A DNA stretch of 64,000 nt from Flammulina velutipes (taxonomy: Eukaryota > Basidiomycota > Agaricomycetes > Agaricales > Physalacriaceae), in contig CM022378.1 in NCBI GenBank assembly GCA_011800155.1, positions 1,054,001 to 1,118,000 of the forward strand. The letters run 5' to 3'. Positions 44,061 through 60,602 of the stretch are shown here, in pieces. Position numbers and translations under genes: made by a program. The notes beneath the pieces are model-generated. The model worked only from the letters and a program-made list of their open reading frames with translations, did no database searches and was not told the origin of the DNA. Within the stretch, counting starts at the first letter, position 1. Every line of letters starts with the position of its first letter.

Positions 44061-45674
44061 ATATCTCTATTGCCCAACACTATCAACCCATACACATCGC
44101 GACGCAGACGAGCCAAGTCGGTGTACCGACTAGCCGTCCGTTAGGACGGTGTTGGCCGTCTTGCGTCTGCGAACTTGTCCCCAATATACGATACAACTAT
44201 TCTAGTAACAATAATGTACGGCTAACACTAGTCTGTTCGAAATCAGTCCAGGTCGAACACAAACGAGCCAAGTTGGTGTACTGACCATCTACGCTCCAAC
44301 TCTCTCAAGTCAGCCATCGTGCTGATTCGCTTCGTCGTCACTGTGTTAGTCTGAAACTCCTTCGTTAAAAATGGTAGTAGTATGAAATAGAGCTTACTTA
44401 CCGTACACGTCGAATGCGCCTACAACGTATTCCGAAATACAGCTGATTGCAAAATCAACACAATGCGCTGAAAACTGTTGAGTCGTCGCATCGTAAAAGC
44501 CTAGAAATGGCACTCACATTGAGCTCCGTGCACGAAGGGACTGTGGTTATCTTAACAAACAAGGTCGAGTTAGCTTACAACCGTAGTAGGCAATTGCAAA
44601 CGTACCATCGTCGTATCGCTAAGCCCAATGTTAGACCATAGCGACGACATTTGAACATTTCCCATAGCGTGCACGATAGACCGAGCATGAAAGGCTACAA
44701 ACGAGTTGAAAACGCGCAAGAGAATGCAAGAAATCAATCAACTCACCTTTGGACTCGCGAAATAAGAAGGAAGGATCACGGAATACAAAAGAAGGAAGCA
44801 GGCAAACACGCGTCTGGCAAAGGCAGCAGTCTTACCATACATGCCAGTACGCGTGCGCCGCAACCCAGACGCTCGCAGCAATCTTACGTTGACGTCTGGG
44901 ATAGATGGGAGTGGGAGGGTACATCGATATCGTTCTAGAAAAAGTGGTTAGTAACGATAATGAGACGATGAAAAGAACACAAACATACCGCGCGATGCTT
45001 GAGAGAGCGCCTAGACGAAGGGTGAGATAGATGAGAGTACATCGGGCTGGATAGAGTAGTTAGTAACGGAAACAGTGGAAATAATAGAGACGTACCGCGG
45101 ACAAAGGGTTAGACATACGAAAGGGAGACATGGACGTACGAGTCCAAGAGACGATGATCCCCGGGTAACGAATAACTATACCATTAAGCTTCAAGCCACT
45201 CGGAGTTCACCGTACGGCGTAGAGCTTGCTTGCCATTGCGTCTACGTATCATTACATCGTATCTAGTACATACAATACAAACACGCACTGAAAGCTAGCT
45301 ATTAATGTTCGCGTTATGAATGTCAATATAAAGGGTACGTACAGCATCTAAACGAGTACACAGAGTCGACGGCGTGTCATCTTGGCCGTGCGCGAGACAT
45401 CTATACTAGTTACATTAACTAGACCGGAAGTGTTGTATTAGTTGACAAGAACAGTAAGCGCTGTCGAAAGCACGTACCACAAACATAATGAACATTAGTT
45501 TGTTCGTTTGCAAAGACCTATATCGCGGTTGTATAACATGGAAGGGGGCCGGGAGATGCTTGTTTAAAGGTCATAATTCCGCCCTCCCGCGTCAACGAGT
45601 TAAATGGGCCCAATAACGCCAACGCCGACAGCGCGGGGGCGCGATATTCGTCGAAACGACTAGCAGGATGTATA
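44061..45674. other. Repeat-rich region with minus-strand splice-like signals, no intact gene
   Basis: About 1.6 kb of AT-richer sequence without long frames. Pairs of similar phrases recur (for example the gagccaag-tggtgta stretches near 44,110 and 44,265). Read on the minus strand, many short donor/acceptor pairs appear (GGTACG, GTAAGT; tag/cag), as in a decayed intron-rich gene. No protein family is recognisable. Confidence 0.35.
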
Positions 45675-46205
45675 GTAGCCGTCGCAAGGCTGTACGTGTC
45701 CCGGATCCCGAAATCGAAATCCCGCACATAAAGGTCCCAACATTTTGGGAAGGACGAAAATCTATTAAACGGTTAGCGCAGCCATAAGCCGCGTAACGAA
45801 TCATTGATACTCACTATTAATACACGAAACGATACCTAGAGCGAACCAGAAAAGTCAGAAAAGGAAGGAAAACAAAATAAACGCCACAATCACGTACCGG
45901 GCGGCAAATATGAACATGTGTGTATCTCTCCGGCGTCCCCCGTAGTTATGCGACATATCAGTGCGTCAAGACAGCACTAGGACGACTCTGATGTCTCGTA
46001 GCCATCGCAAGGCTCTACGTGTCCCGGATCCTAAAATTGAAATCCCGCACATAGATTTGGGATGAACAAAAAGCTATGGAACGGTTAGCACGGTCATCTA
46101 ACGCGTAACGAATCATCGATACACACTATTAATACACTAAACGAGACCTAGAGTGAATGAACAATGTCAGAAAAACAAGAAAAACGAAATAAACGCCACA
46201 ATAAC
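45675..46205 (-). repeat. Tandem exon-intron-like repeat, units 1 and 2 (left of LTR element)
   Basis: Unit 1 starts at 45,675 (gtagccgtcgcaaggct) and unit 2 at 45,998 (gtagccatcgcaaggct), period about 323 bp. Unit 2 is interrupted at 46,206 by the LTR retrotransposon and continues at 60,193. Within each unit, on the minus strand, the same layout repeats: a segment ending at a GTACGT/GTAAGT donor, an intron-like stretch, a 21-nt segment after a CTCTAG acceptor, a GTGAGT/GTGTGT donor, and a segment after an ATAG acceptor. Nucleotide identity between units is high but the reading frames are broken. Confidence 0.7.
46201..46205. repeat. Target-site duplication, left copy (ATAAC)
   Basis: ATAAC directly precedes the 5' LTR and directly follows the 3' LTR (60,188-60,192). 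Five bp is the usual duplication size for Ty3/Gypsy elements. Confidence 0.9.
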
Positions 46206-46390
46206 TGTAAGGGATTCCCCTTACGTGGCGTACGTGGCGCACTACGGCACGATCCGTATTACATAATTAGTCACGTATCCTTCCCGATACGGTAGTAGCG
46301 TTCTTGGTCTTTTACCTTCATGAGCTACGCTTGATAACGTTGAATCTACTTGGTTCAAGTTCTCTGGCGTGATCTTGAGGGACTTTTACA
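46206..46390 (+). repeat. 5' LTR
   Basis: 185 bp, TGTAAGG...CTTTTACA. It is identical by eye over its whole length to the 3' LTR. It contains the short direct repeat TACGTGGCG twice near its left end. It should hold the promoter and poly(A) signals; no clear TATA box is visible. Confidence 0.93.
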
Positions 46391-46467
46391 CTTTTTTGAA
46401 CTCTACTAGTAATTCACAACGAATTCACTGCGATTAAACGATCCTTTGTGGTCAAACTGCTATAACA
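46391..46467 (+). promoter_or_regulatory. Leader / primer-binding region of the LTR element
   Basis: 77 bp between LTR and Gag start, beginning CTTTTTTGAACTC. A primer-binding site should lie here, but the sequence does not begin with the TGG expected for priming by a tRNA 3' end. A self-primed mechanism, as in some fungal Gypsy elements, is possible. Not determined. Confidence 0.35.
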
Positions 46468-49400
46468 ATGTCTACAGCTGTCCCAGCTGAATCTACGTCG
46501 GCACAGGGATTGGACCCCAATATCACCGAACGTAGGAAAACCCAGAAACCAAATAATGACTCAAGAACCATTACCGGGTCAGCCGTCGACGTCGAGCAAG
46601 GTGGACTACCTGAAGACGTCGCCTCTGAAAATTTCAGTGGCAGTGCGATCGATGAGGTACCCATTCCGGCAAGTGCCGACGATGAATCAGCACGCGCAGA
46701 TACCGTCCCGCTTTTCCGGAAAGGCACGCCCGCGCCACACATATACATTGGGAGAGCGGGCGCTAGCTTCAATGCCAATAATGACCGTAATCCAGAAACC
46801 GAACGGTTTATGTCATTAGGCGTCGGACGATCATCGGTAGGTATTTGGGGCAGTAACGCCGCACGGAAAACTCGACTACAGAGTAGTGCTAGATCCGAGA
46901 CCGGAAATATTACTATTGATAACCCTCCGAATGACTCTGAGGCAGCCGGCGAAACGAGCATGTCCATATCTCAGACGGATGAGGACACAGAACAGGAGGA
47001 TGAAGCCATGAGCTTGTATTACCCTAAACTCACGGGGCTTGAGCGCCTACTTGAACTCTATAAACACCGTCTGGAGCGTATGACATTGAGAGGATATAAG
47101 GTGTCCACTGATGAGATAGCCGACTCTGATAGTCACTTAGGCGAACTGGAAAATGCACTGAAAGATGAGGGAATGGAACCTACCTTATCGGATAAAATAC
47201 TCTTAACTTCTCGACGATTGCTCTATATTCTGCTTGCCCGTAGTTCAAAGCGAGATAGGTCTCTATATGATGAGCTTCAAGCCGCCATCGAAGGCGAACA
47301 CGCTGAGCGTTGCCGAATCGAAGAGGAACTCCGAGCCGCAATGGAACTGGCGGCCGCCAGAACCGCCTCTACTATCAATCATGACGCCCAGGGAACAACC
47401 AATGTTAATCATACCAATCGAAGAGCGGTAACGCCCGTCCTTCAGCGGGCACTGAATGTCATGACTAGTCGAGTAGTTCTTCAACACCTCCGTGAAAGTA
47501 ATACCGGGGGAACGGCCGACGTCGAAGACCAGAATGTACGCTCCGGTGAAACTGGAGTAGTATATGCATTATCTGAAAAGAGAGATTATTGGGTCCCTAC
47601 CATATTCTCCGTCGATGACAATGCACCACAACGTTTGACGGTCAATGTATCTAAAATGGTCGGACTACCTATTATTCCCGTCGAGGATATAAACAATAAT
47701 AAAACTCCGGCGGGCTCCCCCAGTCCCACGCCCCCGAATCCTCCTTCTGGAGGAGGTAATGACGGTGGCGGTGGCGGTGGCGGCGGCGGCGGAAACGGTG
47801 GACATGACTCTCCATCACCAACCCCGTGGAGAGCTACCTCGCAATTAGGAAACTCCCCAGCAGCCGATGCGCTGCGTAATAGCAACGAACAAACATTAAT
47901 CAACCGACTTCTCACTATCTACCGGGAACGGGTAGGTAAAGAATTGATACTTCCCAAAGAGGCTAAACCGATGCGGATAGACCCTAAAATTACCAAGTAT
48001 ACGGGAGGTGTCGACTTCCATGTACTAGAAAAATGGGTAGTGGATATTGCAATGTACTTCGAACTCAGCCACCTTGGAGGGAAAGGTAGGGATACGGAGC
48101 GCTTAAACCTTATGATGACCTACTTAGACGGCGCCGCCGATGTCTGGTACCGCAACCGAGTGCTATCCATATATCGTGATAAGAGAGACTGGTCATCTGA
48201 AGATATTATCGTAGGACTCTTCACACGCTTCATTAAAACGATCACGTTACATGACAACGCATATAGGTTCGAAGCATTGAAATGGCGCCACGATCATTCA
48301 GTGGACAACTTCTATGATGAAATGATTGATTTAGCCAACCTTATGGCCATACGACCATCCGAATCGGAGCTGAAGAAGAAATTCATCCACAATTTGCCTG
48401 GGCCGTACTCCGATGGTATGATAGACCGCGGATTTGATCTAGTAATGAACCCCATCGACCTGCTACTAGACGCAGCACGAGCTCAGGAAATATCAGCGTA
48501 TGATAAAGGCAAAATGGCCCAACGACGTAACAAGGATAATCCCCGTCCGATCAATCATGACCTGATGCGCATGCGATCCCGCACCGTGGTTCGTCCATTC
48601 GTGGGGAGAACAGGAGAGTTGCCTGCTGGCAACTCCAATCAGCCAAAATTGGCTAATGTGACCAACCCCAATCCGCGTGCTGCCCCCAACGTGTCGTCTC
48701 CGCTCCGTCCTGGTAACGCGGCAGTAGCCAGAAATGTTAACTCAAAGCGCGAGCCCAGAGAGGTGGCGTGCTGGGATTGTGGAAAAAATGGAGTCATGAA
48801 AGGACATCCGGGATGTCCCACACCTAACACCAATAGTGCTAGACCTCCTAGGCCTGCTCACATTCGAGCGGCGTTTGATGACGGCGCCGACGAAGACGAA
48901 GATGTCGGAGGTGCATTTGATCCAATTATCGAAGATGATGACTTGAACGCTCAAAGCAATTTAGACTTTGACCCGCGAACTGATCCGTATGAGATCATCG
49001 AGTACGAGATATACGATGATGATTCACATAACCAGTGGGATACTATCACCATGGCGGCAATGAGTGATGTTGCCACTCAAATTGACTTCAAAGGGCGAGG
49101 AGCAGGAAAGATCCAGTTACGAGTGCGCAAGGAACCTTATTCTCGACCCGAGCTGCCCCTCAGTGAAAAACGCTGCCTCGCGACGTTCATCGAGCTTGGT
49201 GACGGCTGCGCTGGATTAGCATTGTGGGACAGTGGTAGTACCACATCTAGTGTTAGCCCCCAATACGCTAGTATCGCCCAATTAGATGTCCGGAAACTCA
49301 AACAGCCCGTTCAGTTGTTCTTAGGAACAGTAGGGAGCCGGTCATGGATCAATTTTGGGGCTATTGCCCGCGTTAAACTTCCCACTATCACTGACGATGA

Positions 49401-49623
49401 CTACTTCGATGTCGTGAACTTGGACCGATACGATATCCTTATTGGCGCCCCCTTTATGCATAAGTACGGAGTGCATCTGGACTTCGCTCATAAATGTATT
49501 CATATTGGCGATGAGACTTTGGCTGCTGATATCGTTCCGGTAAATGAAGAAGCACTTCAACGATATAGGATGCGACGCGCCGGAGAAATGGACGGTGTCG
49601 AAGCCGACCTGTCAACCAACTGA
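46468..49623 (+). CDS. Gag-protease polyprotein of the LTR element
   Basis: 1,051 aa without introns. Residues 1-200 are acidic and probably disordered. Residues 230-300 are helical. A Gly-rich run lies at about 430-440. Residues about 485-690 match retrotransposon Gag (FHVLEKWVVDIAMYFELS; RFIKTITLHDNAYRFEALKW; ELKKKFIHNLPGPYSDGM). A zinc knuckle near residue 770 reads CWDCGKNGVMKGHPGC, i.e. C-x2-C-x8-H-x2-C instead of the usual C-x2-C-x4-H-x4-C. The C-terminal aspartic protease has its active site at LWDSGSTTSSVSP (about residue 922) and a flap/ILG-like block DILIGAPFMHKYGV. The ORF ends in a TGA at 49,621-49,623 followed by CTA, with the same frame open beyond it. Confidence 0.92.
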   Translation: MSTAVPAESTSAQGLDPNITERRKTQKPNNDSRTITGSAVDVEQGGLPEDVASENFSGSAIDEVPIPASADDESARADTVPLFRKGTPAPHIYIGRAGASFNANNDRNPETERFMSLGVGRSSVGIWGSNAARKTRLQSSARSETGNITIDNPPNDSEAAGETSMSISQTDEDTEQEDEAMSLYYPKLTGLERLLELYKHRLERMTLRGYKVSTDEIADSDSHLGELENALKDEGMEPTLSDKILLTSRRLLYILLARSSKRDRSLYDELQAAIEGEHAERCRIEEELRAAMELAAARTASTINHDAQGTTNVNHTNRRAVTPVLQRALNVMTSRVVLQHLRESNTGGTADVEDQNVRSGETGVVYALSEKRDYWVPTIFSVDDNAPQRLTVNVSKMVGLPIIPVEDINNNKTPAGSPSPTPPNPPSGGGNDGGGGGGGGGGNGGHDSPSPTPWRATSQLGNSPAADALRNSNEQTLINRLLTIYRERVGKELILPKEAKPMRIDPKITKYTGGVDFHVLEKWVVDIAMYFELSHLGGKGRDTERLNLMMTYLDGAADVWYRNRVLSIYRDKRDWSSEDIIVGLFTRFIKTITLHDNAYRFEALKWRHDHSVDNFYDEMIDLANLMAIRPSESELKKKFIHNLPGPYSDGMIDRGFDLVMNPIDLLLDAARAQEISAYDKGKMAQRRNKDNPRPINHDLMRMRSRTVVRPFVGRTGELPAGNSNQPKLANVTNPNPRAAPNVSSPLRPGNAAVARNVNSKREPREVACWDCGKNGVMKGHPGCPTPNTNSARPPRPAHIRAAFDDGADEDEDVGGAFDPIIEDDDLNAQSNLDFDPRTDPYEIIEYEIYDDDSHNQWDTITMAAMSDVATQIDFKGRGAGKIQLRVRKEPYSRPELPLSEKRCLATFIELGDGCAGLALWDSGSTTSSVSPQYASIAQLDVRKLKQPVQLFLGTVGSRSWINFGAIARVKLPTITDDDYFDVVNLDRYDILIGAPFMHKYGVHLDFAHKCIHIGDETLAADIVPVNEEALQRYRMRRAGEMDGVEADLSTN

Positions 49624-51849
49624 CTACCTGACAGATTACCCTCTCCCCGACCTAGCGTATCTGATGATGATGAGTTTGATAAAGAGCTCATCGCGGAGTT
49701 AACAACTCAGCGTAAACACAGTCTACCGAACGACGGTAGCACTCCAGTGTTAATGACCCACGATGACTATATCGAGTTAGTATCCCATCAAACCCGATCA
49801 CCTACACCAAAAACGGAACACACCGATCAAACATCTAATCCTTTACGGCCTTTAAAACCAGAAACGCCTGTAATCCCTATTCCCAGCTGGGGTAATCAAA
49901 TTGACATGACCTCCTACTGCCAACCATCCTCTTCCCGAGTGAAGATGGAGGACTTGGTGACTGATGCCGATGATGCCATCCACACGTCCGAACACATCGA
50001 CATTGGAGATGATAACGAAGACGAAGAGATATTGTACGATGTACCGCGTATGAGCTTCTGGAACCGTGTACCTATCGTGCCGGGCATGGATAGATTATTG
50101 GAGGATGGCTCGATGCCACCCGAATATAATGTACTTATCAATGCGATGACTGAATATACAATGCATTGTAGACAACCTGAATTGATTAATTATCCCGACT
50201 TTCCTGATAATGACTCGTCATTGTCCGACGGCTATAGCTACCCTTCGGCGACCGCGCCTACCACCGTGGGACCGTTCGAGTTCACTCGATCTCTCTACAC
50301 GACGGACCAGCGGGAGCATCTATTATCTATGACGGTCGGTCCGGAATTAACTGGTCCAGACGAGCTGAAACGTGTGCGGCAAATGGTAACCGAGAATGAA
50401 ATGCGTAACCTCAACAATGGCTGTCGTCCTTCACCGCAGTTAATGCCCTTAAGTATTCCAAAATACCTGAAAGGGAAAGAAAAACAGAGCGTGTTAGATT
50501 GCACGGATATACCCAGACTCCGTGATCATTGGTATGATGAATATAAGGATATGATGGATGGGGTACCCGAAGACCGTATGCCCCCGTGGCGTGAAGTCAA
50601 CCATGAAATAAACTTGATTGAGGAAGAAAGAACCTACCACTACCACTATCCCAAATGTCCTCATGCTCTCCGAGATGAGCTTCGAGACAAAACTCAGCGA
50701 TATATGAAATCGGGTTGGTGGGAATCTAAAACTTCGGCACAAGCGGCACCAATGCTGTGTGTATTCAAAAAGGATAAGAAATTGCGTACGGTAGTCGATT
50801 TGCGACAGCGCAACGATAACACAATCAAGGATGTGACACCACTTCCTGATCAGGAAATGATTCGCGAAGATGTGGCGCGTGCGAAGGTCAGATCGAAAAT
50901 AGATCTGTCCGACGCGTATGAGCAAGTCCGAGTAATTGAACGAGATATTTGGAAGACGGCGTTCCGCACACCTACGGGAACGTTTCTTAGTCACGTCATG
51001 CAGCAAGGCGACTGCAACGCTCCTGCGACGTTCCAAAGAATGATGACTCACATCTTTCGTGACATCCTGGGCGAGTTCGTTCACGTTTATCTGGATGATA
51101 TATTCGTCTTCTCTAATAATATCGATGACCATGAAGTTCACTTGGAGGCCGTATTAAGCCGTCTACGCGAACAACAACTGTATCTAAAACGATCAAAGTG
51201 CGAATTATATGCTGAGGAAATTGACTGCTTAGGTCACAAGATCGATGATCTGGGACTACACGCGGATGGCGACAAGCTCGAGCGAATCCGTGAATGGCGG
51301 ACTCCCAGGTCGTATCACGATATACAACGATTTGTCGGCTTAGTCCAATACCTGGCGGCATTCCTACCAGACATTACCGCATATACCGCGCCGTTAATGT
51401 CCATGACCCAGAACGGACATCCGTTCTCGTGGCGTCCGCTCCATCAGCGCTGCTTCGATATGATCCGTTACATATGTTGCAAGACCCCTATATTGAGACC
51501 TATTGACCCCAGTAAATCCGACGCTGAGCCTATATGGCTCATTTGCGACGCGTCCAAGACTGGTGTCGGCGCGATGTTGGGTCAAGGACCTACGTGGGAT
51601 ACTTGCCGACCCGCTGGATTTATGTCTAAAAAGTTTTCCACGGCTCAGCAACATTACCGTGTTTATGAATTAGAAACACTGGCCATACTAGAAGCATTGC
51701 TTAAGTGGGAGGATAAATTAGCTGGCCATCGTATCCATATTATCACGGATCATAAAGCACTGGAGTTCTTCCACACTCAGAAGAGCCTATCCCCTCGACA
51801 GATGAGATGGATGGATTACATGTCCCGATTCGATTTCGACATCACATAA
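49624..51849 (+). CDS. Reverse transcriptase-RNase H (5' part of pol), in frame with Gag after a UGA
   Basis: This frame is the direct continuation of Gag-protease beyond the UGA at 49,621 and is open for 2.2 kb; the first in-frame ATG is at 49,747. Reverse transcriptase motifs: RTVVDLRQRNDNT, SKIDLSDAYEQVRV, the YLDD box in HVYLDDIFVFSNN (near 51,085), and CLGHKIDDLG. RNase H begins with ICDASKTGVGAML and continues YRVYELETLAILEALLKWE and IITDHKALEFF. The frame ends at 51,849 only because a DNA transposon is inserted at a TA within the RNase H/tether region; the remainder resumes at 55,366 in the matching frame. It could be made by readthrough of the UGA or from a separate start. Confidence 0.9.
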   Translation, partial: LPDRLPSPRPSVSDDDEFDKELIAELTTQRKHSLPNDGSTPVLMTHDDYIELVSHQTRSPTPKTEHTDQTSNPLRPLKPETPVIPIPSWGNQIDMTSYCQPSSSRVKMEDLVTDADDAIHTSEHIDIGDDNEDEEILYDVPRMSFWNRVPIVPGMDRLLEDGSMPPEYNVLINAMTEYTMHCRQPELINYPDFPDNDSSLSDGYSYPSATAPTTVGPFEFTRSLYTTDQREHLLSMTVGPELTGPDELKRVRQMVTENEMRNLNNGCRPSPQLMPLSIPKYLKGKEKQSVLDCTDIPRLRDHWYDEYKDMMDGVPEDRMPPWREVNHEINLIEEERTYHYHYPKCPHALRDELRDKTQRYMKSGWWESKTSAQAAPMLCVFKKDKKLRTVVDLRQRNDNTIKDVTPLPDQEMIREDVARAKVRSKIDLSDAYEQVRVIERDIWKTAFRTPTGTFLSHVMQQGDCNAPATFQRMMTHIFRDILGEFVHVYLDDIFVFSNNIDDHEVHLEAVLSRLREQQLYLKRSKCELYAEEIDCLGHKIDDLGLHADGDKLERIREWRTPRSYHDIQRFVGLVQYLAAFLPDITAYTAPLMSMTQNGHPFSWRPLHQRCFDMIRYICCKTPILRPIDPSKSDAEPIWLICDASKTGVGAMLGQGPTWDTCRPAGFMSKKFSTAQQHYRVYELETLAILEALLKWEDKLAGHRIHIITDHKALEFFHTQKSLSPRQMRWMDYMSRFDFDIT
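51847..51848. repeat. TA target duplication of the DNA transposon, left copy
   Basis: TA at 51,847-51,848 is repeated at 55,364-55,365 on the other side of the transposon. Using only one copy restores the pol frame. Confidence 0.88.
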
Positions 51850-51872
51850 GGTAGGCGTCGTCCACAAGTGAC
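51849..51872 (+). repeat. Left terminal inverted repeat of the DNA transposon
   Basis: 24 bp starting AGGTAGGCGTCG, exact reverse complement of 55,340-55,363. Confidence 0.93.
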
Positions 51873-52218
51873 GAGAACACGTGATCAAGGTGTGACAGCG
51901 CCTTCCCGCCCATACTCTTCCACGGCGGCGGGATGGCAGGACTACTCGCAACCACTAGAGGGTTCAGAAACACTATTATTCATATTCTTGGGTTGTAGAA
52001 TGTTGCTATCTGACGTCTATAAAAAGTTTTGTAACATTTCTTGAGAAAGTGCTCAAAACATCAAGATCATCGTCCTCGCGCAAGTTCATTTTTTGTTCAA
52101 AATATTTTCGCGCAGTGTGGCGCAGTGTGGCGTAGCCTCGTGGAAGCCTCGTGAAGGAAGCCACGAGGTCTTAGCATGTTCGTTTCACTATTCACCTCTA
52201 TTCTACCACGCTTCCAAC

Positions 52219-55211
52219 ATGCCCAAGTTGAAGAAGAGCAAAAAAGCCCAAAATCTCGGGATCTATTCAGTCAAGGTAGGATGCAAAGTAAGAAATACAT
52301 GTCTGTATGCTTAACTGTACACAGAAAAATGATAGACCAAAGAAAGGAAAGCATTCACAGTGTGTTATATCCTCTTCCGACTCAGATCAGGTCTGTTGCA
52401 AGTTTCTAAAGTTGACATCCAAGTCTTACAGTTTCAACAGTCAGATCACCAATTCCAAGATGACATTGCCAACAACTCAGATGAGGAGCTGGTTGTCTTA
52501 GGCGAAGATGATGTTCCTCTGATGGCAGAGGGAGATTTACTTCGTTGGCTCAATGTAGACTCGGAGACAGTGCATACCAGTGCCGCTCCTCAGAGACGTC
52601 GTGCTTATCACTCGCGCCAGATTGGGAAGGAAATGTCAGTCCGTCGACAACAGGAATTGTGTGCAAACTCCCGACAGCAATCAGAACGCGAGGCACGGGA
52701 AAACGATAGACTCCGGGTCAAGCCAACTGTCATTCAGGACTTTTTCAAGACGAAAATGGCAAGACTAAATTCCTCATCAAGTTCCATTCAGTGTAGCGAC
52801 AGTGATGATGAAGCTTCTTCCAATACTCTAGCCATTCCCTCCGAGACAGTCTCTCGCGCGTCATCTGTCTCCTCTCGCGCGTCGTCCCTCGCTTCATCTG
52901 TTCCTGCTTCGGAGATCTCGTCAGATGGCCATGAAAACATGGACATTGATTCTGACAATGATCCCTTCACGGCTTGTCTTGAAGATCAGACACCCGACAT
53001 CGACATCGACATCGAAGACGCTCCCGTTAACCTTCTGACTCCGGAAGAGCTGGCGGAGGAAGGTCTAGATGTGTTAGGAATTGACCTTGTCGATGAGCTC
53101 GGGCTCGATGATTTTGAGGATGAAGAAACCTCACCTTCTGTCCCAGAGCAGCCGGAGCCCACCCTCCCAACTGAAGCAGATGGATGTATGCCACCAGTTC
53201 ATGTCATGTCCAATCCAACAGAGCGACCAAACCCTAAGGAATGGTTTGTGCATGCTGACGAGTCATTCAATCTTCGTGCGGAGGAGGTTGGCACAGGAAA
53301 ACCTTCAAGGCTTTCAGTTCCAACTGCAGAGGAGATTGACGAAGGGATCAACAATCTCACCAATATTCTCAGACCGCGTCGGGCTACTGGTCGTGGATAT
53401 AAAAGCCCTCCACCACTGGGACGTGTCGTTCTTGCTCGGCTTGGTCTGATGCTGCAATTGCTGCGCCTCTTCAAGCGGGCTGAGATGAAGGGATGGATTG
53501 AGCAGTCATTGGAGGTCGCGGAGAAATGTTCATCGAAGGGGCCAGCACTCGCACGAAACCTTCGCCGATGGTCTACACTGTTCTGCAAGGATAAGACAAA
53601 GCTTCCACTCTCAAACTGGGGTGCTCACAATGCATCCATCCTCGATCGCGATGAGGATCTCGCCAACGACATTCATCTTCATCTCCAATCTCTCGGAAAA
53701 TGGGTTTCAGCAGACGATGTTGTCCAATACGTGGCCGGTCCTCTTTTCCAAGCACGGCTTCGGGTTAAAAAAACCATCTCCAGAACGACTGCCCAGCGTT
53801 GGATGATCCGGATGTCTTATCGCTGGAAAGAGGAGAAACGAGAGCAATATTCAGATGGGCACGAACGAGAGGATGTTCGAGCGTACCGTCAAAATATCTT
53901 CGTTCCAGAATGGCAAGGCTTTGATCTTTGTGGACGTCGCTGGGATGGTAAGGATGCTGCGTCTATTGAGCTTGATGCGAAAGAGAGAGCGGTGAAGTAT
54001 GGTGATGGACGAATCATTGTGATTTGGCGACACGACGAGTCTACGTTCTATGCCCATGATCGTCGGAAACGGGGCTGGAGGTTTGAAAAGGCGAAGGCAG
54101 AGATCCATCCAAAGGGAGAAGGAGTGAGTGAGATGGCCGGAGATTTTGTCTCACCAGACTATGGTTGGTTAAGGTCGAAGGAGGCACGGCCCGACGGGCA
54201 AGTGAAATTTGATTGATCTTGTTTCTCTTCTTCTCACCTCCACACAGCACCTTTGAGGATGCTCGTGTTCTTCATCGAGCTGGGAAGGCACGCGATGGAT
54301 ATCAGACAGTGGACGACATCATTGCTCAAGCAACTCGCGCCATGGACATCCTCGACCGTGATTACTCTAACGAGCGCCACGTCTTTGCATACGATAATGC
54401 CACAATCCACTCCGCGCGTGCACCCGATGCCCTCAGTGCAAAGAAAATGACAGCTGGCCCCTCCGATAATTTCAACAAAATCAAACGCGGCGATAAAACA
54501 GTGCAAACCCGAATGCGCGACACTGTCCTTCAAGATGGAACACGGCAATGTCTCTATGATGGCGATGGGATCTTCAAGGGAATGCGACAACTCATTTCGG
54601 AACGTCGTGAGCATGGTCATCCACTTCCCAATCCATCCTCTCTTCGTGCTGAATGCAGTGTAACCACCACCGACGAAAAGGGGAAAAAACATGTCAAAGC
54701 ATTTTCATGTCGTGACCAGCCTACTACCACCTGTTGCATGCGCAAGGTCATGTACTCAGAGGAAGATTTCAAGTCCCAGAAATCGTGGCTGGAAGAGCAC
54801 TGTGAACGTCGTGGTTACAGTGTTATTCTCTTTCCCAAATACCATCCGGAACTGAACTGCATCGAGCAGTGCTGGGGCTTTGCGAAGCGGGTTTACAGGA
54901 TGTTCCCTCCGTCGTCTAGAGAGGATGTGCTACATTCCAACATTATCAAGGCATTGGAGGCTGTCCCGTTGGAGTCTATCCGAAGGTGCGTCATAAATTA
55001 CTGCTATATTGCTGATACTAACATGTTTTCATACAGATTTGCCACCCGTTCATCTCGTTTCCTAGACGCGTATGCAAAGGGTCTTAGCGCGTCAGAAGCA
55101 TCATGGACGAACAAAAGATTCCGTGGCCATCGTACCCTTCCAGCAGATTATGCTAAAGATATGCCCAAGTTACCAAACTACACTGATACATCATCTACTA
55201 CATCTAATTAA
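52219..55211 (+). CDS. DDE-superfamily transposase
   Basis: Five exons (52219-52275, 52325-52390, 52432-54201, 54258-54985, 55037-55211) encode about 931 aa with every junction in frame. The N-terminus is basic (MPKLKKSKKAQN). A long acidic Ser-rich region runs to about residue 300, then a helical DNA-binding part (WGAHNASILDRDEDLANDIHLHLQSLGKW; RTTAQRWMIRMSYRWKEE). Candidate catalytic triad: Asp in IVIWRHDESTFYAHD, Asp in HVFAYDNATIHSA, and Glu in FPKYHPELNCIEQCWG. RFATRSSRFLDAYAKGL and FRGHR close the protein. This is the abundant basidiomycete DDE endonuclease type. The intron at 54,202-54,257 needs the acceptor TTTGAG to avoid a stop, giving GQ|DARVLHRAGK. No disabling mutation is seen. 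Confidence 0.88.
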
Positions 55212-55339
55212 CTATTTTATCCACACAAAAATGCCTCTGGAGCTGGATTATGAACCCACGAGTGCTGTGCGCCACACTTCAAAATCGTCGCTTAAAATTT
55301 CGCGCCGTGACTGTGATATGGTCACGCGCACGTGATGTA

Positions 55340-55363
55340 GTCACTTGTGGACGACGCCTACCT
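55340..55363 (-). repeat. Right terminal inverted repeat of the DNA transposon
   Basis: 24 bp ending GACGCCTACCT, exact reverse complement of the left repeat; followed by the TA duplication. Confidence 0.93.
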
Positions 55364-55365
55364 TA

Positions 55366-57283
55366 CGTGAAAGGGGAGAACAATAAAGTAGCTGACTGTC
55401 TATCCCGATACTATGAAAATGATACGTGGCAGGAGGCTCATTCCTTTCATGAATATGTAAGGGCCGACGTCCGAATAGATCCCGATGGACATGACCTGCC
55501 CATGGATAGGTACAACGAAGTTCGCGATATGACAGTTGAGATCATGGCTATGACCGAAGATAATAGGCGCAGGAGCCGACGTCTTCTCGAACGACAAGAA
55601 CTACGGGACATAGAGGCCGATGAAATGGCTGCATCCCCCGAACATTCTCATCTAGCAGCTCCGCCTAGTGGAACCAGGAGCGATAGAGATGACTTGAACT
55701 CAACGCTGGCTAGTGATTCCGGGACTGACATCAGTCTTGAAGAGGCTCTCAACAACGCATATATGGGATTGCCCCCACCCACACAAGACGATACGTTCTT
55801 TGCGGCTGTAAGGAACGCGATCGGGGACGATGCATTGTTTGGCAAGATCATACTTCGCCCCGATGACCACCGACTGTTCACCGTCCGCGACGGTATGGTT
55901 TTCCATAAACGAAATGATAGCGGCCATGAGGTGCTATGTTTACCGTCTGGAAAATACGAAGATAAATCAATCCGGGGAGCTATCATCGAACAAGCTCACC
56001 GAACTCTCGGGCATTATGGCTCCCAACGTACCAGTGAATATTTACGGCGATGGTACTGGTGGCCTTCACTAGTGCGCGATGTTAACGCATTCTGTACGAC
56101 ATGCGAAGCGTGTCAGAGATCTAAAGGGACAAACCGCGCACCAGCTGGGCTACTACATTCACTACCGATACCAACTCGACCGTGGGAATCCATTGGTATG
56201 GACTTTGTTGGCCCGTTCCCCGAAGTAGATGGATACAACTACCTCTGGGTAGTAGTATGTCGCATGACTGGTATGGCTCACCTGATACCAGTCAACACGA
56301 AGTTGAAAGCTTCGGATCTGGCGCATAAGTATGTCCGGGAAATCGTTAGATTACATGGCTTACCGAAATCCATTGTCAGCGACCGTGATTCGAAATTTAC
56401 ATCTAAATTCTGGCGTGAGATCCACCGGATACTTGGGACCAGCCTTCTCATGTCGACGTCCTTTCATCCACAAACGGACGGAGCGACCGAGCGGATGAAT
56501 CGATCCATTGGGGAAATCTTCCGATCTGAGCTCAGCCCGAATCAAAAAGACTGGTTGTACCGGGTTGACCTCACGGAATTCGCTATAAATTCAAGTGTTC
56601 GTGTATCTGCGAGATACTCTCCGTTTGAGCTCAACGGGGGATACATGCCATCTATGATCCGGACCTACGAGACGGATAGACCAGCGCCACGCGGAATTAA
56701 GGCGTTCGCTCGTATGGCTCTAGAAAATCTGGCTGAAGCACACGACGCGATTATCGCGAGTCGCGTGTTCCAGACCCATTATTCAAATAAGAAACGGTCG
56801 GCCGAGCCGCCGATAGAGGAGGGGACATTAGTTTACCTCTCCACTGTCAACTTGAATATGCCCAAGGGCAGGGCACGAAAACTATGTCCTAAATTTGTGG
56901 GACCTTATAGAATTATCGAGGCTCAACCTGCTTCGTCTACATACCTACTAGAACTTCCGCCAGCCTTGACTTCAAGGAACCTACATGCCAGGTTCCATGT
57001 TAGTCTACTCAGGAGGCATGTTCCTAGTGATGACTTGCTGTTCCCGGGAAGATACCAGCCCGGTCCATACGATTTTGGTGCCCAGGATGACGATGAAACG
57101 TTCGTCGATGAAATACTAGGCCACCGCTGGCGTGGCGGAAGCAGCCTCGAGTTCCAGATAAGATGGTCTGATGGGGATACTACTTGGGAGCCACTAGCGA
57201 CAGTACGGCCCCTGGAGGCACTGCGCTCGTATCTGGCGCTGCAGGGAGTGAAGACCACACGGTCGTTGCCCAAGCATAAATAA
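55366..57283 (+). CDS. Integrase and chromodomain (3' part of pol) of the LTR element
   Basis: Continuation of pol beyond the nested transposon, starting with the end of RNase H (VKGENNKVADCLSRYY). The integrase zinc-binding HHCC motif is in QAHRTLGHYGSQRTSEY and FCTTCEACQRSKG. The catalytic core has Asp in SIGMDFVGPFPEVDGYNY, Asp in SIVSDRDSKFTSKFW and Glu in HPQTDGATERMNRSIGE. After LHARFHVSLLRRHVP, a chromodomain (FVDEILGHRWRGG; FQIRWSDGDTTWEPLATV) ends the protein, which in chromoviruses directs integration to marked chromatin. No internal stop. As it stands, this part is cut off from its RT-coding start by the transposon, so pol is broken unless the transposon excises precisely. Confidence 0.9.
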
Positions 57284-57408: not shown

Positions 57409-59827
57409 ATGACTCTGGTCGATAGTCCTGCCGAGGACTCTAACGTGGGGGGGATCGTACAGCCCGCGCCACATCAGGGACAAACTAAGAACGATGATGG
57501 CGTTAGCTCAAGCAGATGGAGCGACTCGCCGTACGAAGAAGGAGAGATCCAACACAGTGCGTTGGTGCAACAATAATCATAACAACTTCGAACTAAAAAT
57601 GGCCCTATCATAGAAATGTTCAAGGTCAAAAACATGTTCAGCGGTACACCAAAGTTCGCCCCGCACGTCCAACGAGCAGCTGCTCCTGAGGCGAGGTCAC
57701 TGCCCCCTCGACCCATCACGCCTCATCCTGAGCTTGACAGCTATTCGCCGTTGGAACGGAACCAAGTGCTCTACGAAATGGGCATGGATCAGATGTATCG
57801 GGATGGCCAATTGTCGGAATCAGTACTATGCTCGACTCATTCCGACATTGTTAACCGAATCTTCGCGGACTTCTATGCAGATCAACGCAACAATCCCGCT
57901 CAGGTTAGCCGTCAATGACTCCCACAACTATACACAGCACGCTGATCACTTAAATATATAGAGATACGGACGTCAGGACAATGGTCCGTCATCTCGAAGG
58001 CCCAGTCGAGGGAACCATCGGAATCCTCCTGGCGCTAACCACAATCATCCATACAAAAAGAGTACCCAATCCTTTGGACCACCGTCCACTAACCGTGCAC
58101 GATCCGCCCCAGAAGGCCCTCGCAATCCCATCCCGGATGGGACACCCTTCCCCGCGGCTATCCCGATAACATCGTTTGAGCCATGGCTTGAGCCACGGGA
58201 GCACCGATGGGAGATGGTCAACCTAGACGTCCCCAGCCTTATCATCGATCTCCTCACGGACACAGCGACGGGGCCAGTGACTATAGGCATCGCTGACTCT
58301 GACGATGACATGGAGTATGACTCCGAGCTCTCGTCGATCTGGCGCAGCACTGGAAACTCATTCGCCCCCCTCGGACGATCCGATCCACTTGAATCCATCG
58401 AGCCCACCTGTGTCGATTTCTCGTCCATCGGCAAAATCCATCCATCTATTGGCACCGTCCTTATTGGACGCAATCGTGAGCGCAACAACCTGTTTGCCCG
58501 CGTAACCCTATTACTCCATCCTCGATGCACATTCCACGAAGGCGACAACTCCTTCAATCTTGGCGCCCGAGCGGTAGCTGCATATCTTAATCTATATACC
58601 CCTCCTCGCCCATGGCTGCCGGTCTACGAAGAGGCCGACACTTGGATTCGCGGTTTCCCTCGTAATGTCGAAGAGCTCAACGAGGGGCTCAAGACTATTG
58701 AGTCCAGATCCGACGGCTGGCATTTCAAAACACTCATCATCGCGTTCGTTTACACCGTGGCGCAACGAATGGTACCCTCGACATGGGACGCCGTTTTGGC
58801 CCGTACTTATGACTGGATGATCTCCGACGATGACCATCCCGTGGCAATCACGGAAGGGAACGCAGCTCACCATAACCTGGGCAGCTCGAGTGCCCAACCT
58901 GGTACCCAGTTGCCCACCCTATCCGGGTTTCCCAGTCCTATTCCGGACATCTTTGGACCCGACGGTGGCCACACGTTAGACGTCTATTCGTTCGCATTGT
59001 CCTCTTTCGCTCATCATGGCCCTGGCTCCGAGTCCCCCTTTCTGGGATGCGCGTTCGATATGTCTGGACGCGCCTCCGCCGCTCACATCTTCGGCGAAAT
59101 GGTGTATCGAGCTCTCGTACCGTTCGTCCGTGATAGCGATGGGAAGATTCAGGCCTCGTCTCAACAAGATCTTCGCGTACAGCTGCGCCGTTACTTGGTG
59201 GCCGTGCTCTCGCGCCCCAATCTATACATCGACATTATTGGTCGATCCCAACGCGCTTCCGAAGCCGAAAAAGACCCCGCTTTGAAAGCGAAGAAGCTTA
59301 TCTCCGTCGCTGTCCATGCCAATAGTGACAAACCCATTCTCCGACACCTCGTATGGCCCAACCCTTCTAAACTCCTGTCCGAGACCGCTATCGTTCGCCT
59401 ACTGGCATCCTGCGGATTCAAGAAAAAGCATGTCGACTCCATGTACCGTTGGAACACCCAGCACCTGATTTCATGGACCACGAAGACTGATGCAGAAGGG
59501 GAATACTGGCGCAAACTGGATGTCGAGCGCCTTCAACGGGTAGCCGAATTCGGCGCCCCCGCCACTTTGCCCGAGTGGGATGGATGGATCATTTTCTCGT
59601 TGACGGACATCGAGCGGCTCCGCCCGTACTTTGACCGCGACCTTTATGGCTCCGACCGCGATCGATTTGGCTCGTTGTCCTGGGTGAAATTTGGCGAGCA
59701 TCCATACTTCACCCACTGCTATGAGGACACCTACGCTATCCAGGACGACGTTGATGCGTCCTCGGAAGCGATGGGCATGGTTACCCTAGCCGATTCGTCG
59801 CCTGATGATGTTCCTATGACTGCTTAG
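57409..59827 (+). CDS. Extra 3' gene of the LTR element (env position), unknown protein with two introns
   Basis: I do not recognise this protein. Three exons fit (57409-57556, 57614-57903, 57962-59827), about 767 aa. Intron 1 has donor GTGCGT and acceptor TCATAG; intron 2 has donor GTTAGC and acceptor TATATAG; phases 1 and 0 both match. Exon 1 is short and acidic (SSRWSDSPYEEGEI). The middle is basic and disordered (GRQDNGPSSRRPSRGNHRNP). The C-terminal 500 residues look folded and helical, with many Trp and aromatic residues (WIRGFPRNVEELNEGL; GCAFDMSGRASAAHIFGEMVYRALVPF; LTDIERLRPYFDRDLYG). There is no signal peptide or transmembrane segment, so it is not an envelope protein by sequence. 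It lies between the chromodomain and the 3' LTR, inside the element. A Gag-like accessory role or captured host gene are both open. Confidence 0.75.
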
Positions 59828-60002: not shown

Positions 60003-60187
60003 TGTAAGGGATTCCCCTTACGTGGCGTACGTGGCGCACTACGGCACGATCCGTATTACATAATTAGTCACGTATCCTTCCCGATACGGTAGTAGCGTTC
60101 TTGGTCTTTTACCTTCATGAGCTACGCTTGATAACGTTGAATCTACTTGGTTCAAGTTCTCTGGCGTGATCTTGAGGGACTTTTACA
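60003..60187 (+). repeat. 3' LTR
   Basis: 185 bp, no difference from the 5' LTR seen by eye; followed by the ATAAC duplication at 60,188-60,192. Confidence 0.93.
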
Positions 60188-60192
60188 ATAAC

Positions 60193-60602
60193 GTACCGGG
60201 CGGCAAATATAAACATCTTTGTATCACTCCTGCGTCCCCCCGTAGTCAAGCGACATGTTAGTACATCAAGATAGCACTAAGACGACTCCAGCATCTAACA
60301 GCCGTCGCAAGGCTGTGCGTGTCCCAGATTCCAAAACCCGCAGACAGAGGTCCAAACATTTGTGAAAGAAAAGCTATGGAAACGGTTAGCGCGGTCATAT
60401 ATCGCGTAACGAACCATCAATACACACTATTAGTACATTAAACGAGACCTAGAGCGAACCAGCAAAGTCAGAAAAAGAAGAAAAACGAAATAAGCGCCAC
60501 AATCACTTACCGGGTGGCAAATACAAACATCTTCGTATCGCTCCGGCGTCCCCCCGTAGTCAAGCGACATGTTAGTGCGTCAAAATAACACTAAGACGAC
60601 AC
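60193..60602 (-). repeat. Tandem exon-intron-like repeat, rest of unit 2 and unit 3
   Basis: The sequence from gtaccgggcggcaaatat continues unit 2 cut by the LTR element at 46,205. Unit 3 starts near 60,299 (agccgtcgcaaggctgtgcgtg) and repeats the same order of minus-strand splice-like signals (CCCGGTAAGT donor, CTCTAG acceptor, 21-nt segment, GTGTGT donor, CATAG acceptor). Length is about 304-315 bp per unit. Confidence 0.7.

What the first reader, a model, noticed from the sequence alone, without database searches (positions are those of the whole stretch)
49600..49760. Gag-protease and RT are one frame separated by a single UGA-CUA stop: likely programmed readthrough
The gag-protease frame ends ...AAC TGA CTA CCT at 49,621. 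The identical frame stays open from there through RT and RNase H (2.2 kb) and, without the nested transposon, through integrase and chromodomain. UGA followed by CUA is the best-known leaky stop context in eukaryotes (used by several RNA viruses and some cellular readthrough genes). Most Gypsy elements use a frameshift or a single ORF, so UGA readthrough would be an unusual Gag/Pol ratio control in a fungal retrotransposon.
Basis: partly seen in the sequence, partly recalled or inferred. Interest (0 to 1): 0.75.

Follow-up and report, generated by a model that had tools for sequence, protein, structure and literature searches.

The report
Conserved leaky stop in fungal retrotransposons
A stop codon of a well-known leaky type (UGA followed by CUA) sits between protease and reverse transcriptase in this fungal jumping gene and is kept, while its surroundings change, in nearly all its distant relatives in the same genome, so it is very probably a working switch that rations the enzyme part rather than a mutation.

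Summary
Of 12 loci of this RT clade in the genome, 10 have TGA CTA at the same place and frame, one has TGA CGG (the other classical type II context), one has no stop there. Between the three lineages the 30-nt flanks are only 13-47% identical, ungapped. Codons between the stop and the first downstream ATG are conserved as protein in most pairs tested, though hardly for the window itself. No canonical intron spans the stop in 9 of 9 distinct elements. No conserved 3' RNA structure was found. Programmed UGA readthrough is the best explanation; none was measured. The principle is known: fission-yeast Ty3 elements use TGA CTA/CTG between Gag and protease (PMC10085805, PMC4600332). Different here are the place after protease, the spread through a whole clade of another fungus, and the CTA/CGG exchange. 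This copy itself is interrupted by a nested DNA transposon.

The parts
46206..46390 (+). 5' LTR, 185 bp, TG...CA, identical to the 3' LTR
   Evidence: ATAAC at 46201-46205 before it
46468..49620 (+). Gag-protease ORF from its first ATG, read by eye (stop-to-stop frame 46438-49623); zinc-knuckle-like motif by eye; protease with DSG at its end
   Evidence: RVP_2 19.0 bits, cut-off 20.3; DSG invariant in 10 aligned proteases
49621..49626 (+). TGA CTA: in-frame stop with type II readthrough context
   Evidence: TGA CTA in 10 of 12 clade loci, TGA CGG in 1, no stop in 1
49624..51849 (+). first part of pol in the same frame: linker of about 377 codons, RT, RNase H; cut by the nested transposon
51849..55363 (+). 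nested DNA transposon with inverted ends and TA on both sides; DDE_3 transposase ORF 54213-55211
   Evidence: exact ends read by eye
55364..57283 (+). second part of pol: integrase (H2C2, rve), SH3_Tf2-1
   Evidence: rve 31.8 bits, just under its cut-off of 32.6
57962..59827 (+). third ORF after pol (621 codons, stop to stop), no known family
60003..60187 (+). 3' LTR, 185 bp; G-rich tract before it, ATAAC at 60188-60192 after it

Best explanation
The UGA CUA at 49621-49626 is a programmed, leaky stop codon. Most ribosomes stop and release Gag-protease; a minority decode UGA with a near-cognate tRNA and go on to make a Gag-protease-RT-RNase H-integrase fusion. Because protease lies upstream of the stop, it is made one-to-one with Gag and only the enzymes are rationed. 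The signal is mainly the local context (UGA plus CUA or CGG). Shown here: one common frame, conserved context, coding constraint on both sides. Inferred: that ribosomes read through, at what rate, and which amino acid goes in.
For: Same position and frame in 11 of 12 loci of the clade, 10 TGA CTA and 1 TGA CGG; UGA followed by CGG or CUA is how type II readthrough was defined (PMC3542737, passages). Between lineages the 30 nt upstream are 0.17-0.43 and the 30 nt downstream 0.13-0.47 identical, ungapped. In 8 of the 10 pairs pS is 0.79-0.94 and pN 0.13-0.43 (15 values). After the stop frame 0 is open to the end of the fetched locus (442-499 codons) in 11 of 11, the other frames for at most 33 codons, which argues against a frameshift. 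Before the first downstream ATG, C9a and C12 align over 84 codons with pS 0.82-0.83, pN 0.38 and a score of 152 against 21 and 60 in the other frames; C2 against C8b scores 76 against -2 and 21, C2 against C13b 54 against 0 and 4. The codon before the stop has A in the middle in 11 of 11. Identical LTRs in the window (185 bp) and in C3 (226 bp), and identical junctions of C9a and C8d, point to recent transposition with the stop in place. A metagenomic Gag-protease, P0001, 60% identical, ends at the same residue. In Ustilago maydis CUA after UGA was sufficient for readthrough (PMC4207609, passages).
Against: No readthrough was measured. One clade member (C8, about 640 kb, L010/L034) has no stop at the junction and an in-frame TGA TCA inside its protease; it groups with two stop-bearing elements at 92/99, not a starred branch. 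Several clade copies are degraded elsewhere: the frame around protease is only 620, 305 and 387 codons long in C8a, C8b and C9b, C13b carries an insertion in protease, the C8b pol frame ends after 953 codons. No conserved 3' RNA structure: junction z averages -1.0 against -0.6 elsewhere over 9 elements, although type II sites often have one. For the window against C2 the first 36 codons after the stop show little constraint (28% identity, pS 0.72, pN 0.59), and for C7 against C9b the frame contrast is weak (scores 100, 54, 50). In Candida Tca2 the UGA and its flanks did not direct readthrough in S. cerevisiae (PMC2194720, abstract). Host TPI and PGK genes showed no readthrough extension by eye. 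Only one genome could be read as DNA.
Confidence: 0.88

Rival explanations
1. A private nonsense mutation in one copy of a single-ORF Gag-Pol element.
For: The window copy is already broken by a nested transposon; clade member C8 at 640 kb has no stop at the junction; outside the clade 13 of 18 fetched RT loci show no stop in the 1500 nt before the RT match.
Against: A stop stands at the same place in 11 of 12 clade loci from three lineages, TGA CTA in 10 and TGA CGG in 1; the window LTRs are identical.
Confidence: 0.01
2. Pol is started separately: termination and re-initiation, internal ribosome entry, or a second transcript, with a downstream AUG as start; Tca2 has a minor promoter in its junction (PMC2194720, abstract).
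For: An in-frame ATG lies 11 to 90 codons downstream of the stop; most listed database pol proteins begin with M in or after the linker, though that is how gene callers work; the window against C2 shows little constraint before the first ATG.
Against: The first ATG is not at a fixed place; 84 codons before it are conserved as protein in frame in C9a against C12; a separate start gives no reason to keep UGA CUA or the common frame in 11 of 11.
Confidence: 0.06
3. An intron removes the stop codon in a fraction of transcripts.
For: Fungal genes have short introns (general knowledge); some public gene models join protease and RT (P0022, P0083), possibly by a modelled intron.
Against: 0 of 9 distinct elements have a frame-keeping GTRNGY...CTRAY...YAG intron of 40-150 nt over the stop; other intron types were not tested. 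Splicing would not select for CUA or CGG after UGA.
Confidence: 0.03
4. TGACTA is kept as a DNA or RNA site of another kind, not as a readthrough signal.
For: Little beyond the six bases is conserved.
Against: It is in phase at the end of protease in 10 of 10, and the one substitute is TGA CGG, the other type II context.
Confidence: 0.02

Closest known systems
Tj1 / Tosmo1-3 / Tcry1 Ty3 elements of fission yeasts (PMC10085805 section 28 part 1; PMC4600332 passages)
   Same: Fungal Ty3/Gypsy elements, in-frame TGA followed by CTA or CTG, local context conserved; Tj1 without the stop showed no activity.
   Different: There the stop is between Gag and protease, with GAA before it; here it lies after protease, with NAN before it and about 210-420 codons to the RT match; one member has CGG.
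Type II viral readthrough sites, for example of alphaviruses and tobraviruses (PMC3542737 passages)
   Same: UGA followed by CUA or CGG; both occur within one group.
   Different: A retroelement, not an RNA virus replicase; no conserved extended 3' stem-loop found here.
Murine leukaemia virus and other gammaretroviruses (PMC5009743 passages; PMC3542737 passages)
   Same: Readthrough of an in-frame stop makes the Pol fusion.
   Different: UAG with a pseudoknot; placed between Gag and protease (recalled).
Alpharetroviruses such as Rous sarcoma virus (recalled)
   Same: Protease belongs to the Gag product; the recoding site lies between protease and RT.
   Different: Frameshift, not readthrough.
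Tca2 of Candida albicans (PMC2194720 abstract)
   Same: UGA separates gag and pol.
   Different: Ty1/Copia type (recalled); its flanks did not direct readthrough in S. cerevisiae.

Membership tests
Type II stop-codon readthrough site | UGA stop followed by CUA or CGG | tested here: met
   TGA CTA in 10, TGA CGG in 1 of 12 clade loci; 1 without a stop
Type II stop-codon readthrough site | same frame open and coding on both sides | tested here: met
   (weak just after the stop for the window against C2)
Type II stop-codon readthrough site | extended 3' RNA stem-loop starting about 8 nt downstream (common, not universal) | tested here: inconclusive
   junction z -2.5 (window) and -2.9 (C3), but +1.1 (C2) and +1.0 (C13b); no common fold seen
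Type II stop-codon readthrough site | measured readthrough product | not testable with these tools
   needs a reporter or proteomics
Ty3/Gypsy LTR retrotransposon | RT-RNase H upstream of integrase in pol | tested here: met
Ty3/Gypsy LTR retrotransposon | LTRs TG...CA with short target duplication | tested here: met
   185 bp, identical, ATAAC on both sides
Ty3/Gypsy LTR retrotransposon | chromodomain (chromovirus branch) | tested here: inconclusive
   no PF00385 in the window at E 0.001; precomputed PF00385 in some relatives, for example P0004, P0005, P0025
Tj1/Tosmo group | in-frame TGA between Gag and protease | tested here: not met
   the stop lies after the protease domain
Tj1/Tosmo group | GAA TGA CT octamer | tested here: not met
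   the window has AAC TGA CTA; GAA TGA CTA occurs in C7 and C9b

The most novel reading that the evidence does not exclude
A whole clade of mushroom-lineage Ty3/Gypsy elements uses short-context type II UGA readthrough placed after protease, which gives the Gag-protease to enzyme stoichiometry of alpharetroviruses by a different recoding mechanism, and has exchanged the two classical contexts (CUA and CGG) during evolution; one member may have lost the stop.
Probability: 0.7. Interest if true: 0.6.

Novelty: new variant of a known kind. Interest (0 to 1): 0.55.

Why it matters
It gives a natural series of nine distinct junctions in one genome in which nearly everything but six bases has been changed by evolution, which argues that UGA CUA (or CGG) is the essential signal in a fungus. 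It suggests that the recoding site can sit after protease, so that protease is not rationed with the enzymes, and it offers a natural CUA/CGG exchange and one apparent loss for comparison. It joins the type II rule of RNA viruses and retroelement biology in one testable system.

Tried and rejected
Private nonsense mutation: rejected by 11 of 12 loci. Frameshift: frames +1 and +2 close within 33 codons in 11 of 11. Intron over the stop: no candidate of the pattern tested in 9 of 9. Conserved 3' RNA structure: not found. Relatives in viral contigs: none, two scans. Host readthrough genes as a yardstick: TPI and PGK ends showed no extension by eye. ORF3: no protein at E 0.001 among 7995 scored candidates, no Pfam match up to E 1 for three copies. 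LTRs of the stop-less element (C8 at 640 kb): no repeat between the two stretches fetched (7.5 kb); its 3' end was not reached. Paper searches whose listings showed no paper on such a site in a basidiomycete element; judged from titles and starts of abstracts, in a library of open-licence papers only; most listed papers were not opened.

Values left out of the ranges quoted (10 pairs): the close pairs C8b-C13b (downstream pS 0.61, pN 0.08) and C7-C9b (upstream 0.49, 0.03; downstream 0.64, 0.12), and the upstream values of C13b (pS 0.74; insertion in that copy). Alignments on protein favour pN below pS; the out-of-frame control covers 4 of the 7 pairs. The other three were C9a-C3 (pS 0.79, pN 0.45), C12-C3 (0.89, 0.53) and window-C2 (0.72, 0.59). 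Flank identities are ungapped and so too low where there are indels. C8a and C8d, near copies of C2 and C9a, count among the 12 loci but not among the 9 distinct elements.

Full report
Observation. Under the standard code the frames 46438-49623 and 49624-51849 are adjacent and in phase. The element has identical 185-bp LTRs at 46206-46390 and 60003-60187 with ATAAC on both outer sides. The first frame ends with an aspartic protease (RVP_2 19.0 bits in the window against a cut-off of 20.3, 21.5 bits in the relative on C2; DSG invariant in 10 aligned sequences). The second holds RT and RNase H and is cut at 51849 by a nested DNA transposon with inverted ends and a DDE_3 transposase. The integrase part follows in 55208-57283. 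So this copy cannot be expected to make a complete Pol whatever happens at the stop; in the relatives C2, C9a and C3 the post-stop frame is uninterrupted for 1365, 1210 and 1210 codons.

Relatives in the same genome. A DNA search with the junction found the window and one weak relative. Protein searches with protease (26 matches) and RT (141 matches, 30 given as loci; both are lower bounds) showed a clade of 12 loci with 68-100% RT identity; every other match has 45% or less. At the end of protease 10 of the 12 read TGA CTA, one (C3 at 588130) reads TGA CGG, and one (C8 at about 640 kb, L010) has no stop there but a TGA TCA inside its protease. Of the 18 fetched RT loci outside the clade, 13 have no in-frame stop in the 1500 nt before the RT match and 5 have one, none of them TGA CTA or TGA CGG (TGA CTT, TGA ACA, TAA ACC, TAG TAT, TGA ATG; the TGA CTT lies only 57 nt before the match). 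The other 111 RT matches were not examined. Several clade copies are degraded in Gag or pol (C8a, C8b, C9b, C13b) but keep the hexamer.

Why this is selection. The RT tree shows three lineages: the window with C2/C8a and C8b/C13b (99/99, starred); C7, C9b and the stop-less C8c (92/99, not starred); C9a/C8d, C12 and C3 (97/95, starred). Between lineages the 30 nt upstream of the stop are 17-43% identical and the 30 nt downstream 13-47%, ungapped, while the ten TGA CTA hexamers are the same. In 8 of 10 pairs pS is 0.79-0.94 with pN 0.13-0.43; the two close pairs are lower in both. CTA is 94 of 6967 codons in these frames. The middle base before the stop, A in 11 of 11, is the only other fixed position near the stop that I noticed.

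Why readthrough. The continuing frame is 0 in 11 of 11 and the other two frames close within 33 codons. There is no ATG at a fixed place; the first in-frame one lies 11-90 codons downstream. In C9a and C12, whose first ATGs are at codons 88 and 90, the 84 aligned codons before them are conserved as protein (46% identity, pS 0.83, pN 0.38) with a block NRQLPVLLxPDDY, and much less so in the other two frames (scores 152, 21, 60). C2 against C8b (76, -2, 21) and against C13b (54, 0, 4) agree; C7 against C9b is ambiguous (100, 54, 50); and the window against C2 shows little constraint in these first codons (28% identity, pS 0.72, pN 0.59). On balance the region directly after the stop is made as protein in phase with Gag-protease. 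No intron of the canonical pattern tested spans the stop in 9 of 9 distinct elements. UGA followed by CGG or CUA is the type II context (PMC3542737, passages), and in Ustilago maydis CUA after UGA was sufficient for readthrough (PMC4207609, passages).

What does not fit. A conserved 3' stem-loop is absent: window and C3 have the lowest and second lowest z of 23 windows each, C2 and C13b have positive ones, and the means are -1.0 at junctions and -0.6 elsewhere. The element C8c shows a stop-less arrangement within the clade; whether it is alive is open. Host TPI and PGK gave no sign of readthrough by eye. Tca2 warns that an in-frame UGA need not be read through by its context (PMC2194720, abstract).

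Other genomes. Only proteins could be searched. One search gave two Gag-proteases: P0001 (metagenomic, 60% identical over its length) ends at exactly the homologous residue, and P0002 (42% over the query part) also ends soon after protease. Pol relatives are many (2813 at E 0.001 among 7971 scored candidates, best 120 listed); the named ones in the list are from Lyophyllum, Agrocybe, Phanerochaete, Phlebia, Mycena and Trametes, which are Agaricomycetes (recalled). Most listed lengths fit a separate pol ORF, but the search's own length window favours that, and a few gene models join protease and RT (P0022, P0083). Stops cannot be seen in proteins, so spread across species is inferred, and so is the kind of fungus the window comes from.

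Comparison with the known. The nearest are the fission-yeast Ty3 elements with TGA CTA or CTG (PMC10085805, section 28 part 1; PMC4600332, passages). They work alike, but their stop lies before protease; this clade's lies after it, so it is not a member of that group by structure. A recoding site after protease is the alpharetrovirus layout (recalled), there by frameshift. I therefore file it as a new variant of a known kind.

Noticed in passing
window 57962-59827; L063 1-1476 (-); L064 7655-9886; L059/L060, L061/L062, L065: A long further ORF follows pol in 6 of 6 elements looked at (window 621, C3 617, C12 590, C9a 743 codons stop to stop; C2 at least 492 and C8c at least 964, cut by the fetched end). 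Similarity is detectable only between window and C2 (25%, E 3e-22), C12 and C9a (23%), and weakly window and C8c (20%, E 2e-4); C3 matches none. No Pfam match in three copies, no protein relative of the window copy.
   Followed up: partly
window 51849-55363: Nested DNA transposon within pol: inverted arms of 42 nt, 90% complementary with flanking bases, TA on both sides, DDE_3 transposase at 54213-55211 and a 626-codon ORF before it without Pfam match.
   Followed up: partly
G000 C3 about 582-593 kb (L059, L060): Relative with 226-bp LTRs 100% identical, TGA CGG at the junction, and the lowest z of the 9 elements for +9 to +209 (-4.1), reminiscent of viral UGA CGG sites with stem-loops.
   Followed up: partly
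G000 C8 about 640 kb (L010, L034): Clade member without a stop at the protease-RT junction but with TGA TCA inside protease, where the relatives shown have an arginine.
   Followed up: partly
window 45667-46253 and 60185-60600: Other repeats (units of 175, 64 and 102 nt, further copies 63-89% identical) lie on both sides of the element, so it may have inserted into an existing repeat.
   Followed up: no
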